Shown here: one piece after another, positions 34,176 to 62,776 of the stretch | Numbering within the stretch: position 1 is the first letter of the stretch | Layout of the letters: each line of letters opens with the position of its first letter | Origin: Gottfriedia acidiceleris | GTDB lineage: Bacteria > Bacillota > Bacilli > Bacillales > Bacillaceae_G | Reading direction: 5' to 3' | NCBI RefSeq assembly: GCF_023115465.1 | Contig: NZ_CP096034.1 | Location: 1,798,001-1,862,000, forward strand | DNA: 64,000 nt | The notes under the pieces: generated by a model | Told to the model about the DNA's origin: nothing | The model's input: the letters and a program-made list of their open reading frames with translations, nothing else | The model's database searches: none | Translations under genes and position numbers: made by a program

Positions 34176-34649
34176 ATGCCATCAGTTGAAAGTTTTGAAT
34201 TAGATCACACAAAAGTTGTTGCTCCTTACGTTAGACACTGTGGTACTCATGCAGTTGGTACAGACGGAGTCGTTACAAAATATGATATTCGTTTTTGCCA
34301 ACCAAATAAGCAAGCAATGAAGCCAGATACAATTCACACTTTAGAACATTTATTAGCTTTGAACGTTCGTGAAGCAGTACCTGCAGGTGACCCTTTTAAA
34401 ATTATTGATTTATCACCAATGGGATGCCAAACAGGATTTTATTTAATCATTGCTGGTACACCTTCAATTTCAGAAGTAATCACTTTATTACGTAAAACAG
34501 CTGAACTTGGATTACAAGTTGAAGAAGTACCGGCTGCAAATGAACTTCAATGCGGCCAAGCAAAACTACATGACCTTGAAGGCGCAAAAAAATGGTTAAA
34601 ATATTGGAGCGAACAAACAGACGAAACGTTGGAAAGCGTATTTGCTTAA
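34176..34649 (+). CDS. luxS: S-ribosylhomocysteine lyase LuxS
   Basis: A 157-residue (B. subtilis length) metalloenzyme that splits S-ribosylhomocysteine to homocysteine and the autoinducer-2 precursor. The HTLEHLLA motif provides two His ligands and the general-base Glu, [10 protein letters not shown] carries the catalytic Cys84, and the metal Cys is in ELQCGQ. It is placed after mccA-mccB-yrrT, 28 bp away with AGGAGG, so its homocysteine can feed MccA directly. Confidence 0.97.
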
Positions 34650-34653
34650 TAGT

Positions 34654-34685
34654 GAAAAACGTCATCTTAATGGATGACGTTTTTT
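34654..34685 (+). terminator. luxS terminator, first of two identical copies
   Basis: GAAAAACGTCATC / GATGACGTTTTTT hairpin with T-run. The same 32 bases recur at 35201-35232, flanking the 515-bp repeat element; they are probably a target-site duplication. Confidence 0.9.
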
Positions 34686-35200
34686 CATGCTGTTGAAAAA
34701 CTACCTTGTCAATTAATTATCAAATTTTCGTAAAAAGAGTAGAGTGATGTTGATTTCCACTACAGGGTGCTCGCTTTCCATGGGGCGAGATTCTTTTGCC
34801 TCCTCGGCAAGCCTGTGGGGTCTCAGCCTTCCCGCTAATCCCATAGGAGTCGATCACCCCTCCGCTCCAATCAACTTATTCAAACAAAAAAAGTTTACAA
34901 TAAATGCTAGTCAAATAGCCTTTACTTAGAGTAACCTAACTTTTGTAATCAGCTTGTACATCAATTAATATCGAACAATTATTAAACTAAACAATCGAAT
35001 TTGTTTTCCTAAAAATAGCCCATAATAGTTTTAACTTCTAAAAAAAATCATTACTAGTGTTATTGGAATAATGAAATTGCTCAAACACATTTACATTTAA
35101 AACCATTAAAAGATCATTCAAAAAATGCTAATTTTATCATTATTAAATGTTCATTTAAAGTCCGTTTTCCCTATTGACGTCTTTATATTTCAACACTCTG
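34686..35200 (-). repeat. Copy A of a 515-bp terminator-flanked repeat element
   Basis: Over its whole length this matches, in inverted orientation and with few differences, the element at 60533-62748 once the IS1182-type insertion is removed. The ends are a short imperfect inverted repeat (TGTTGAAA near 34691-34698 and TTTCAACA near 35188-35195). It codes for no credible protein. It contains a GC-rich core (34749-34875) and AT-rich flanks. It is bracketed by the duplicated luxS terminator, which suggests insertion by a mobile mechanism. Confidence 0.8.
34749..34875. repeat. Structured GC-rich core of the repeat element
   Basis: 127 bp bounded by GTTGATT and AATCAAC, so the two ends can pair. 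Internal strings such as CTTTCCATGGGGCGAG, CTCCTCGGCAAGCC and GGGGTCTCAGCCTTCCCGC are far more GC-rich than the surroundings. From memory, similar intergenic sequences with this layout are common in Bacillaceae genomes. No function is known to me. An apparent 61-codon frame across it is not a gene. Confidence 0.65.
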
Positions 35201-35233
35201 GAAAAACGTCATCTTAATGGATGACGTTTTTTT
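35201..35233 (+). terminator. luxS terminator, second copy beyond repeat A
   Basis: Exact repeat of 34654-34685, again followed by T residues. It has no gene of its own, consistent with duplication on insertion of the element between the two. Confidence 0.85.
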
Positions 35234-35280
35234 ATATAGTTGGAATAAAGAAAATTGTAGAGTGAAAATAAAAAAGGTGA

Positions 35281-35363
35281 AACTGCAATTAAAAATGGCC
35301 GAACAGCAAATAAAAAAGTCAAAACTCCAATTAAAATGACGTGAACTAAAAAATTAGATCACG
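35281..35363. repeat. Four degenerate tandem 21-bp units
   Basis: Units begin AACTGCAATTAAAAATGG (35281), AACAGCAAATAAAAAAGT (35302), AACTCCAATTAAAATGAC (35323) and AACTAAAAAATTAGATCA (35344). The period is 21, apart from the last unit (20 bp). There is no coding potential. The rest of the 35234-35540 gap shows nothing recognisable. Confidence 0.5.
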
Positions 35364-35540
35364 AATCATTAATAAATTAGAGTGAATCCAACAAGAATCT
35401 CGAGGATTTATACTAAAAATTAAGAAAAGAATAAATCAAAATAATATCAATTAAAAAAGATAAAAAATACATAAATCTCGCCTAAAGGAAAGTTGGAATC
35501 CAGTAGTAATAAAACAAAAATCGTTTTTCAAAAAAATGAA

Positions 35541-35571
35541 AAAAACGTCATCCTAATTTCGATGGCGTTTT
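35541..35571 (-). terminator. Terminator of the minus-strand small gene pair
   Basis: AACGTCATC / GATGGCGTT stem (with G-T pairing); on the minus strand it is followed by T residues. Its stem is related in sequence to the luxS terminator (AACGTCATC). Confidence 0.7.
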
Positions 35572-35596
35572 TGATTAAGTAATTTACGTTTTTATA

Positions 35597-60352: not shown

Positions 60353-60375
60353 TGAAACGTATCTATGCTACGTTT
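60353..60375 (+). terminator. ypdA terminator hairpin, copy 1 (variant)
   Basis: AAACGTA / TACGTTT hairpin 12 bp after the ypdA stop; slightly diverged from copies 2 (60512-60532) and 3 (62749-62769). It has only a short T stretch before the repeat element begins. Confidence 0.6.
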
Positions 60376-60511
60376 CAGAGTGTTGAAATATAAAATGGCA
60401 ATAGGAAAACGGACATTAAATTGAATATTTATTTAATGATGAAATTATCATTTTTTTGATGATCTATTAATGCTTTTAATTATTTTTATGTTTGAGCAAT
60501 TTTCAACAGCT
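60376..60511 (+). repeat. 136-bp internally deleted version of the repeat element
   Basis: It starts CAGAGTGTTGAAATATAAA as copy C does, follows its left 130 bp with moderate divergence (AATAGGAAAACGGAC, TTTGAGCAATTT), then jumps to the right-end sequence TCAACAG. It lacks the GC-rich core. Terminator hairpins flank it on both sides. It is a MITE-like derivative of the 515-bp element. Confidence 0.7.
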
Positions 60512-60532
60512 TGAACGTAGCTATGCTACGTT
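60512..60532 (+). terminator. ypdA terminator hairpin, copy 2
   Basis: AACGTAGC-TAT-GCTACGTT perfect hairpin between the short and long repeat copies. It is identical over 21 bp to copy 3 at 62749-62769; no T-run follows here. Confidence 0.7.
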
Positions 60533-60962
60533 CAGAGTGTTGAAATATAAAGTCGTCAATAGGGAAAACGGACTTTAAATGAATATTTAATAATGATAAA
60601 ATTAGCATTTTTAGAATGATTTTTTAATGTTTTAAATGTAAAAGTGTTTGAGCAATTTCATTATTCCAATAATACTAGTAATGATTTTTTTTAGAATTTT
60701 TTTAGAAGTTAAAAATATTATGGGTCATTTTTAGGAAACAAAGATTTTGTTGTTTAGGTTCGATATTAATTGATCCTACAAGCTGATTAATATACAACAG
60801 TTAGATTACTCTAAGTAAAGGCTATTTGACTAGTATTTATTACAGACTTTTTTTTGATTGAAAAAGTTGATTGGAACGGAGGGGTGATCGACTCCTATGG
60901 GATTAGCGGGAAGGCTGAGACCCCGCAGGCTTGCCGAGGCCACTGAAAAAGTCCTTGTGATT

Positions 60963-61012
60963 AAAAAAAGTGAAGGCTTTCTCGATTTCATCGAGGAAGC
61001 CTTCACTTTTTT
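60963..61012. terminator. Terminator hairpin at the left end of the IS1182-type element
   Basis: A stem of more than 20 bp (GTGAAGGCTT...CTCGAT / ATCGAG...AAGCCTTCAC) with A and T tails on either side, just inside the IS end. It would block read-through into the transposase. Confidence 0.8.
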
Positions 61013-61051
61013 CTTGTATAATTGTTGTATCAAGTAACGGTGGTGTATCGA

Positions 61052-62512
61052 ATGATCTCAAATCAAGAATCTTTTACTCTCAGTCCTTTCATGGCTTTAT
61101 ACGATTTAATTGTTCCGAAAGATAATATACTTCGTCAAATAAATGAATTAGTAGATTTTACGTTTGTTTTAGAAGAATTAAAAAATAAATATTGCCTTGA
61201 TAACGGCCGGAATGCAGTGCCGCCTATTCGTATGTTCAAATATTTGTTACTAAAATCGATCTTTGATTTATCAGATGTTGATGTTGTTGAACGATCAAAG
61301 TATGATATGTCTTTTAAATATTTTCTTGATATGGCTCCGGAAGAATCAGTGATCAATTCAAGTTCTTTAACGAAATTTCGTAAGCTTCGTTTAAAAGATG
61401 TTGAATTATTAGACATGTTGATCAATAAAACAGTCGAAATCGCACTTGAAAAAGAACTAATTAAAAGTACTTCCATTATAGTTGATGCAACTCATACAAG
61501 ATCGCGATATAATCAAAAATCACCAAAAGAATTTTTAATGGAAAAGTCAAAGCTTCTTCGAAAAGCTGTTTATCAAATCAATGAGGGAATGAGAGGAAAA
61601 TTCCCACAAAAGCCAACAACGAATGATTTAATCGATGAAATTAAATATAGTCAAAAAGTCATCCAATCTGTGGAAAAAGAAGAATCAATCCGTGAATATC
61701 CAAAAGTCAAAGAAAAACTAAACTATCTAAAAGAAATTGTAGAAGATTACGAGGGCAACCTAGAATTTTCACATGATCCTGACGCAAAAACTGGTCACAA
61801 ATCAGCTGATACCTCATTCTTTGGTTATAAAACACATATTGCGATGAACGAAGAGCGTCTTATTACAGCTGCATTGGTTACTACTGGTGAAAAAAATGAT
61901 GGAAAGTACCTACAAACATTGATTGAAAAAAGTTGTGAAACAGGAATGGAAATTGATACAGTCATTGGTGATACAGCTTATTCAGAGATTGATAATCTTC
62001 AATACGTAAATGAAAATGAATTAAAATTAGTTTCGAAATTAAACCCAACGATTACACATGGAGCACGTAAAAAAGAAGATGAATTTCAATATAATAAGGA
62101 TGCGGGTATGTACGTTTGCAAGGCAGGTCATATGGCAATCCGAAAAAGAAGACAAGAAAGAAAAAATCAGAAAAAAAATCCGCGAGATATGTATTACTTT
62201 GATATTGAAAAATGTAAAAAATGTCCCTTTAAAGATGGATGTTACAAAGAAGGTGCCAAAAGTAAATCATATAGTGTAACAATTAAATCAACTGAACACA
62301 AAGAGCATGCACAATTTCAAGAAAGCGAATATTTCAAAGAGAAATCAAAAGAACGCTATAAAATTGAAGCAAAAAATAGTGAATTAAAACACAGACACGG
62401 GTACAATGTAGCAAATTCCACGGGTCTATTAGGCATGGAAATGCAAGGGGCAATGGCCATATTCGCAGTTAATTTAAAACGAATACTGACCTTAATGAAG
62501 GAAGAAAAATAA
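61052..62512 (+). CDS. IS1182-family transposase
   Basis: A 486-residue DDE transposase. The N-terminal domain starts SFTLSPFMALYDLIVPKDNILRQI and has the DUF772-type NAVPPIRMFKYLLLKSIFDLSD...SSLTKFRKL. The catalytic part has Asp residues in IIVDATHTRSRYNQ and VIGDTAYS, a zinc-like cluster (CKKCPFKDGCYKE), and a C-terminal RYKIEAKNSELKHRHG supplying the Glu. No frameshift or stop is seen. ATG 61052 is preferred over the earlier ATG 61022. Confidence 0.93.
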   Translation: MISNQESFTLSPFMALYDLIVPKDNILRQINELVDFTFVLEELKNKYCLDNGRNAVPPIRMFKYLLLKSIFDLSDVDVVERSKYDMSFKYFLDMAPEESVINSSSLTKFRKLRLKDVELLDMLINKTVEIALEKELIKSTSIIVDATHTRSRYNQKSPKEFLMEKSKLLRKAVYQINEGMRGKFPQKPTTNDLIDEIKYSQKVIQSVEKEESIREYPKVKEKLNYLKEIVEDYEGNLEFSHDPDAKTGHKSADTSFFGYKTHIAMNEERLITAALVTTGEKNDGKYLQTLIEKSCETGMEIDTVIGDTAYSEIDNLQYVNENELKLVSKLNPTITHGARKKEDEFQYNKDAGMYVCKAGHMAIRKRRQERKNQKKNPRDMYYFDIEKCKKCPFKDGCYKEGAKSKSYSVTIKSTEHKEHAQFQESEYFKEKSKERYKIEAKNSELKHRHGYNVANSTGLLGMEMQGAMAIFAVNLKRILTLMKEEK

Positions 62513-62524
62513 AAATGTATAAAG

Positions 62525-62571
62525 GAAAAGGCGATTTTCCGTTCAATTCTGAACGAAAAATCGCCTTTTTT
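62525..62571. terminator. Terminator after the IS1182-family transposase
   Basis: AAAAGGCGATTTTCCGTTC pairs with GAACGAAAAATCGCCTTTT (small internal mismatch), then T residues. Confidence 0.82.
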
Positions 62572-62748
62572 AGATCATATATAGATTACAGTAAATAAAA
62601 TTGACTGTTTTTCAGTGGCCTCGGCTTGCCGAGGAGGCTAAAGAATCTCGCCCCATGGAAAGCGGGCACCATGTAGTGGAAATCAACATCACTCTCCTCC
62701 TTTTACGAAAATTTGATAATTAATTGACAAGGTAGTTTTTCAACAGAG

Positions 62749-62776
62749 TGAACGTAGCTATGCTACGTTTTTTTTA
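62749..62776 (+). terminator. ypdA terminator hairpin, copy 3 with T-run
   Basis: TGAACGTAGCTATGCTACGTT repeated from 60512 in two adjoining parts (AACGTAGC/GCTACGTT stem), here followed by an eight-T run. This looks like the original 3' end of the ypdA terminator. Confidence 0.75.

What the first reader, a model, noticed from the sequence alone, without database searches (positions are those of the whole stretch)
34654..35233. 515-bp non-coding element inserted at the luxS terminator with the whole terminator duplicated
Seen: 32 bases comprising the luxS terminator (34654-34685) recur exactly at 35201-35232, and between them lies a 515-bp sequence with TGTTGAAA/TTTCAACA ends. A second copy, inverted, sits behind ypdA at 60533-62748, also bracketed by exact copies of a different terminator hairpin. 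Because the duplicated hairpins differ between loci, they belong to the targets and not to the element. Known DNA transposons usually duplicate 2-14 bp. Duplicating a complete 21-32 bp hairpin suggests an uncommon insertion mechanism aimed at intrinsic terminators (for example RNA- or hairpin-guided), and it would leave the upstream gene with a working terminator. The mechanism is inference.
Basis: partly seen in the sequence, partly recalled or inferred. Interest (0 to 1): 0.85.

Follow-up and report, generated by a model that had tools for sequence, protein, structure and literature searches.

The report
Mobile element that duplicates transcription terminators
A short gene-less DNA parasite, a cut-down relative of IS1182-type jumping genes, has landed in dozens of hairpin-shaped sites, mostly stop signals at gene ends, and usually left the whole hairpin duplicated on both sides, which suggests that its enzyme reads DNA shape rather than sequence.

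Summary
It is one of at least 45 two-ended copies in this genome (probably Gottfriedia). In 38 of 45, direct repeats of 15-37 bp (median 30), nearly all hairpins, abut both ends; 5 more have a damaged or displaced second copy and 2 a hairpin on one side only. Many relatives have the single hairpin without the element (luxS 8 of 13 loci). The element is a non-autonomous derivative (MITE) of the IS1182 family: an intact 1536-bp IS1182-family element in a congener has the same asymmetric ends and also sits between whole-terminator repeats. Hairpin repeats were also seen at 15 of 21 other IS1182-family loci that I selected. Repeat boundaries are symmetric about the hairpin to the base, as expected if strand transfer occurs at both feet of an extruded cruciform. 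RNA guidance is not supported. Stem-loop targeting by IS1272 of this family is published, but as replacement of the stem-loop; whole duplication was there a hypothetical branch, for which this family is good evidence.

The parts
34654..34685 (.). luxS terminator hairpin, left copy of the 32-bp target duplication
34686..35200 (+). 515-bp non-autonomous IS1182-type element (MITE), ends CATGCTGTTGAAAAA...TTTCAACACTCTG
34750..34874 (+). internal conserved segment (TTGATT...AATCAA, 125 bp) that can fold into a long imperfect hairpin; role not known
35201..35232 (.). luxS terminator hairpin, right copy of the target duplication
35539..35572 (.). older, diverged copy of the same hairpin downstream; relic of an earlier insertion shared with relatives (inferred)
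60356..60375 (.). ypdA-side hairpin, first copy (diverged)
60376..60513 (-). internally deleted short copy of the element (138 bp)
60514..60532 (.). second copy of the hairpin, between the two neighbouring element copies
60533..62750 (-). second copy of the element, interrupted by a nested IS
60934..62624 (+). nested IS1182-family element of another subgroup (ends CCGAGGCCACTGAAAAA), flanked by a 4-bp repeat CTTG
61022..62512 (+). IS1182 family transposase ORF of the nested IS (496 aa)
62751..62769 (.). third copy of the ypdA-side hairpin

Best explanation
The 515-bp sequence is a MITE: a gene-less element that has the terminal repeats of an IS1182-family subgroup and was moved in trans by a transposase of that subgroup. 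The transposase inserts the element into palindromes that can form a stem-loop, in practice mostly intrinsic terminators. [quoted passage not shown] gap repair then copies the whole hairpin, so each insertion leaves one full hairpin on each side. Shown: the match of the ends to an IS1182-family element, the targeting, the whole-hairpin duplication, and the symmetry of the cut sites. Inferred: the cruciform substrate, the mobilisation in trans, and that the upstream gene still terminates.
For: Copies and repeats: 45 two-ended copies, 38 with abutting repeats of 15-37 bp; 11 of 11 single ends looked at (of 13) abut a hairpin, judged by eye. Boundaries: the outer 6 pairs of the repeat are complementary (G-T allowed) in 92% of cases, against 59-60% when the frame is slid by 1 base and 45% background; 27 of 38 repeats have all 5 outer pairs complementary, against a mean of 1.0 and a maximum of 4 in 200 draws of control windows. 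Autonomous relative: L105, 1536 bp, IS1182 transposase (NF033551, 290.8 bits, cut-off 270), ends CACGCTGTTGAAAAA / TTTTTCAACACTCTG, flanked by 33-bp terminator repeats; the left/right asymmetry (CAYGC versus CAGAG) and an inner GTCAA are shared with the MITE. Element-free loci: luxS 8 of 13, asparaginase 4 of 12, COX4 7 of 13. Breadth: 15 of 21 further IS1182-family loci, selected by me, show abutting hairpin repeats. Gene context: 41 of 45 insertions lie in convergent or co-directional gaps, 2 divergent, 2 undetermined, by a crude ORF call.
Against: No intact transposase with these ends was found in this genome: of 10 NF033551 matches, 6 are the intact nested subgroup and 4 are pieces of a decayed copy and a fragment, so the mobiliser is inferred from a congener. 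Two of 45 copies have a hairpin on one side only; of 11 relatives' copies read by eye, 7 have hairpins on both sides and 4 a clear one on one side only; one congener IS (L151) has different hairpins on its two sides and an IS1182 of G017 (L154) has no hairpin repeat. The nested IS1182 subgroup leaves only a 4-bp repeat, so hairpin duplication is not universal in the family. Complementarity is not wholly absent outside the repeat (50% at the first, 68% at the third position outside). No biochemical evidence for a cruciform.
Confidence: 0.85

Rival explanations
1. The transposase is drawn to terminating RNA polymerase or to the RNA hairpin at terminators, not to the DNA palindrome itself.
For: Most targets lie at gene ends (19 convergent and 22 co-directional of 45).
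Against: Some targets are A+T-only palindromes with little terminator character (AAATAAACTTTAGTTTATTT at 981512; AATAAAT...ATTTATT at 3387734, in a divergent gap). The cut positions are symmetric about the palindrome to the base, which transcription direction would not predict.
Confidence: 0.15
2. The insertion is RNA-guided, as with IS110 bridge RNAs.
For: The element has a conserved, foldable internal segment. The match of an element to its own target is slightly above the shuffled mean.
Against: That excess is small and not significant (7.55 versus 7.35 bases; 135 of 2000 shuffles reach it; 31 copies). Targets share no sequence (longest shared word median 5, maximum 9). The autonomous relative L105 has DDE domains.
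Confidence: 0.03
3. The hairpin is carried by the element, or tandem terminators existed first and the element entered by recombination between them.
For: Six of the 8 element-free luxS loci with the hairpin have a second, diverged hairpin 115-414 bp downstream by pattern, and a seventh (L131) has one by eye.
Against: The hairpin differs from copy to copy. The element-free loci have one hairpin at the insertion point, and the window has the diverged downstream hairpin as a third copy. G008 and G011 carry other element copies in the same terminator, the one in G008 in the opposite orientation.
Confidence: 0.04
4. Stem-loop replacement as published for IS1272, with the second hairpin copy gained otherwise.
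For: Same transposase family; two of 45 copies have a hairpin on one side only.
Against: Two abutting copies are the rule (38 of 45), and diverged pairs still align over the whole hairpin.
Confidence: 0.03

Closest known systems
IS1272 / TnSha1 (IS1182 family, staphylococci; PMC5678879, PMC4923244)
   Same: IS1182-family transposase; target is a stem-loop of unrelated sequence, five of them confirmed as terminators by RNA-seq in PMC4923244; both orientations and repeated hits at one terminator.
   Different: There the stem-loop is replaced or partly deleted, with no target duplication. Here the whole stem-loop is duplicated. The model in PMC5678879 (Fig 13, pathway b, read in the legend and discussion passage) draws this outcome as a possibility.
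MITEPye1 of Paracoccus yeei (PMC11578231)
   Same: Non-autonomous element with IS1182-type terminal repeats.
   Different: 4-bp direct repeats and 1-3 copies in the chromosomes, against hairpin-long repeats and at least 45 copies here.
ISBspe1-family and other IS1182-family elements on plasmids of Bacillales (L217-L221) and one Sphingobium plasmid (L222)
   Same: IS with CAG-type ends, flanked by palindromic direct repeats of 18-30 bp.
   Different: They encode their own transposase; one copy of each was looked at.
IS110-family bridge-RNA elements (recalled)
   Same: Conserved structured non-coding segment in the element.
   Different: No significant guide match to targets, and the autonomous relative has a DDE transposase.

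Membership tests
IS1182 family (as non-autonomous derivative) | Terminal inverted repeats match those of an element with an IS1182-family transposase | tested here: met
   MITE ends versus L105 ends; L105 transposase over the NF033551 cut-off
IS1182 family (as non-autonomous derivative) | Own transposase gene | tested here: not met
   The only ORF of at least 60 aa listed inside 34686-35200 has 61 aa; hence MITE, not IS
IS1182 family (as non-autonomous derivative) | Demonstrated mobilisation by an IS1182 transposase | not testable with these tools
   Needs a transposition assay
Stem-loop-replacing transposition (IS1272 type) | Target is a stem-loop | tested here: met
Stem-loop-replacing transposition (IS1272 type) | Target stem-loop is lost, no target duplication | tested here: not met
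   38 of 45 copies have a repeat of at least 15 bp abutting both ends
MITE | Short, no transposase gene, terminal inverted repeats, target duplications, multiple copies | tested here: met
IS110 / bridge-RNA elements | Element RNA pairs with its target | tested here: not met
   by exact word matching only (135 of 2000 shuffles reach the observed mean)

The most novel reading that the evidence does not exclude
The IS1182 transposase group measures its target by DNA shape: it cuts at the two feet of any extruded hairpin, so the length of the target duplication is set by the target's stem-loop and not by the enzyme. This would be a structure-determined target duplication spread over much of the family, and terminators would be duplicated and re-used as landing sites again and again.
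Probability: 0.6. Interest if true: 0.75.

Novelty: new variant of a known kind. Interest (0 to 1): 0.6.

Why it matters
DDE transposons as a rule leave a short target duplication of about fixed length (general knowledge, no call). Here it varies from about 19 to 37 bp and follows the hairpin, which points to recognition of DNA secondary structure and gives a large natural data set to test it. The duplication would explain how such elements multiply at gene ends without removing the terminator, and how tandem terminators and neighbouring elements build up at one site. It also gives a simple annotation rule: palindromic direct repeats of about 17-37 bp next to CANNNTGTTGAAA-type ends.

Tried and rejected
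RNA guide: an element matches its own target hardly better than others' (7.55 versus 7.35 bases, 135 of 2000 shuffles). Rfam: 5 weak matches in 34600-35300, none at its gathering score. Autonomous partner in this genome: none intact with these ends seen in the IS1182-family searches or behind the 11 single ends looked at; other transposase families were not searched. The nested IS1182 as mobiliser: its ends differ (CCGAGGCCACTGAAAAA, 4-bp repeat), so set aside. EamA gene inside one copy (L063) as carried cargo: seven relatives' homologues (77-79% identical) are not directly flanked by the element ends, and COX4 terminators of relatives are empty or hold an element in the opposite orientation, so cargo is possible but not shown. 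Covariation in the internal segment: 1 of 40 pairs with a two-sided change in 18 copies that I chose (15 own, 3 relatives'), too little to decide. A regex scan of 27 relatives' copies found repeats in 3; reading the flanks of 11 of the 27 by eye showed clear hairpins on both sides in 7 and on one side in 4; these are not in the counts of 45. Papers: two IS reviews asked for were not held.

Full report
Observation. The coordinates in the finding are right. 34654-34685 and 35201-35232 are identical 32-mers that contain the whole luxS hairpin with its A and T tracts, and this 32-mer occurs twice on the + strand of the window. The 515 bp between them start CATGCTGTTGAAAAA and end TTTCAACACTCTG, so the terminal repeat is CANNNTGTTGAAA. 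The inverted copy is 60533-62750, between exact 19-bp hairpin repeats; a short derivative of 138 bp (60376-60513) with one more hairpin copy lies directly upstream.

Copies in the genome. The window is 1798001-1862000 of a 4.69-Mb single contig. The genus is probably Gottfriedia: the transposase of congener G010 is identical to one in Bacillus sp. AFS055030, and a 97% fragment lies in Gottfriedia acidiceleris DSM 18954; this is inference. A search with the 515 bp gave 47 matching pieces, with 40 of 185 first-look candidates scored, so counts are lower bounds. Pairing left and right ends over the fetched loci gave 47 pairs and 13 single ends. I dropped 2 pairs as false (1858376-1860750 and 3724638-3727011 join ends of different copies), leaving 45. 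In 38 of 45 a direct repeat of at least 15 bp, mismatches allowed, lies within 0-1 bases of the element on the low-coordinate side and 0-3 on the other; lengths 15-37, median 30. One of the 38 (1138447) keeps only 15 bp, half a hairpin, on one side. Of the other 7, four align with an indel or a partial second copy (2797522, 4086220, 4253845, 4266362), one has the second hairpin displaced by 28 bp (3261265), and two have a hairpin on one side only (409731, 4109572). Of the 13 single ends I looked at 11, and by eye all 11 abut a hairpin.

The repeat is the hairpin. With G-T pairs allowed, the outermost pair of the repeat is complementary in 34 of 38 and the outer 6 positions in 92%; sliding the frame by one base lowers this to 59-60%, and the between-site background is 45%. 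Outside the repeat, pairing is 50% at the first position and between 29% and 68% over the next nine, highest at the third, so some stems run a little beyond the repeat. All 5 outer pairs are complementary in 27 of 38, against a mean of 1.00 and a maximum of 4 in 200 draws of control windows from the flanks. So the two strands are cut at positions symmetric about the palindrome, near or at the foot of the stem. Targets do not share sequence: the longest common word of two repeats has median 5 and maximum 9, and an element's interior matches its own target hardly better than others' (7.55 versus 7.35 bases, 135 of 2000 shuffles reach it; 31 of the 38 copies, those under 530 bp). Context fits terminators: 19 convergent, 22 co-directional, 2 divergent and 2 undetermined of 45, from ORFs called crudely in the script. 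The two divergent cases are 687961 (its left ORF has only 71 codons) and 3387734 (an A+T-rich palindrome).

Element-free loci. luxS was found in 13 of 13 genomes of the genus. Eight have the hairpin at the luxS-proximal position and no element there (L124, L125, L126, L127, L128, L130, L131, L134); L125 has the same hairpin as the window. L129 (G008) has the element in the opposite orientation directly after the hairpin, and the stretch ends inside it; L132 (G011) has a small element of about 105 bp between two hairpin copies, the second diverged. L133 and L135 did not match the hairpin pattern. Six of the eight element-free loci (L124-L128, L130), and the window itself, have a second diverged hairpin 115-414 bp farther downstream in the relatives, preceded in L125, L126 and L128 by an element-like end (TTTCAACAGAATG); L131 has one by eye. 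I read this as a fossil of an older insertion. At the asparaginase locus 4 of 12 orthologues have one hairpin and no element (L140, L142, L146, L147); the others, read by eye, hold intact, decayed or unlike insertions. At the COX4 locus 7 of 13 have the single hairpin and no element in the 330 bases read (L195, L198, L200-L204), 3 have an element in the opposite orientation (L194, L197, L199), L193 is the window genome, L205 has another hairpin, and L196 could not be judged from my printout.

What moves it. The only ORF of at least 60 aa listed inside the 515 bp has 61 aa. In congener G010, L105 holds a 1536-bp element (1373-2908) with an IS1182-family transposase (NF033551 290.8 bits, cut-off 270; DDE domains in Pfam), the same asymmetric ends (left CACGCTGTTGAAAAA, right TTTTTCAACACTCTG) and 33-bp repeats that contain a complete terminator-like hairpin. 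A 91% copy with a broken reading frame in G012 (L151) has the same ends but a different hairpin on each side, which I attribute to recombination. In the window genome the IS1182-family searches found no intact transposase of this type; its 6 intact IS1182 copies belong to another subgroup. Five of these 6 were read at both junctions and sit at one site of this MITE (window, L032, L035, L037, L069); the sixth lies beside MITE positions 117-515 (L038). The nested IS leaves a 4-bp repeat, CAAG or CGAG.

Breadth. These loci were selected by me, not at random. In G016 (same family, other genus) four of six equally scoring IS1182 copies were fetched and all four have hairpin repeats, for example AAAAGAAGAGGCATAGCCTCTTCTTTT. 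Of 1599 plasmid records with a match, 40 were listed and I read 8: six (Bacillus pumilus, Alkalihalophilus pseudofirmus with an ISBspe1-family transposase, B. subtilis, Sutcliffiella horikoshii, Brevibacillus borstelensis, Sphingobium sp.) have palindromic repeats of 18-30 bp abutting CAG-type ends; a Geobacillus copy with its transposase annotated in two pieces has none; a Lysinibacillus locus looks like a tandem that the script could not resolve. Five of five G140 loci have repeats of 17-23 bp with a hairpin; four loci from G075, G202 and G230 were cut short or unresolved. Together 15 of 21. Outside that count: L105 has hairpin repeats; L154 (G017) shows no hairpin repeat; L098 (G012) has a hairpin beside its right end, and its left end was not identified; a decayed copy in the window genome (L068) lies between diverged hairpin copies, by eye. 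Further weak or partial matches were not read.

Relation to published work. PMC5678879 (abstract and 12 passages read) reports that IS1272, an IS1182-family member, targets inverted repeats and replaces them without target duplication; [quoted passage not shown] PMC4923244 (10 passages) reports TnSha1/IS1272 insertion into hairpins, five of them confirmed terminators, with partial deletion, and cites a review saying that some IS1182 members target palindromes. PMC11578231 (6 passages) describes an IS1182-type MITE with 4-bp repeats; PMC3281130 (8 passages) lists an IS1182 element with a 4-bp repeat. PMC10969869 (7 passages) and PMC4438569 (7 passages) had nothing on this point. I recall, without a call, that the IS reference table gives IS1182 target repeats of very variable length, so curators may well know the long repeats. 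In the listings of searches I saw no paper on whole-terminator duplication or on this MITE; only six papers were opened, and the subscription reviews were not held.

Verdict. The finding is real and well founded. It is a MITE family that I found no record of, and strong comparative evidence for a whole-hairpin-duplicating variant of IS1182 stem-loop-directed insertion. The cruciform step is inference.

Noticed in passing
window 60934-62624; also L032, L035, L037, L069 and the 145-190-bp insertions in L033, L034, L036: Another IS1182 subgroup, and a short element with similar ends, insert at one fixed site of the MITE (CCTCGGCAAG, next to a sequence that matches their own end) with a 4-bp repeat: a transposon that uses another transposon as its home.
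   Followed up: partly
L063:995-2511 (genome 3349794-3351310): One element copy carries an intact EamA-type transporter gene between its halves, and the whole 1517 bp is flanked by a duplicated terminator; possible gene mobilisation by the MITE.
   Followed up: partly
window 34750-34874 and the 18 copies aligned: A highly conserved segment bounded by TTGATT/AATCAA that can fold into a long hairpin; partial matches on Bacillus badius and Niallia taxi plasmids. Not noticed in L105; role unclear.
   Followed up: partly
window 60356-62769; L006 and L040 (genome 3362269-3363258); L139; L216: Tandem hairpin-element-hairpin-element arrays: duplicated hairpins seem to be hit again.
   Followed up: partly
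window 35539-35572 and L124-L128, L130: Diverged second copy of the luxS hairpin shared by relatives, with an element-like end before it in L125, L126 and L128: a fossil insertion at the same terminator.
   Followed up: partly
L068 (genome 3586953-3588166): Decayed IS1182 of a third subgroup (ends near CAGATTGTCGACAAA) between diverged hairpin copies.
   Followed up: no
L133 (G005), luxS terminator: The luxS-side hairpin seems to have a second long palindrome in its loop region.
   Followed up: no
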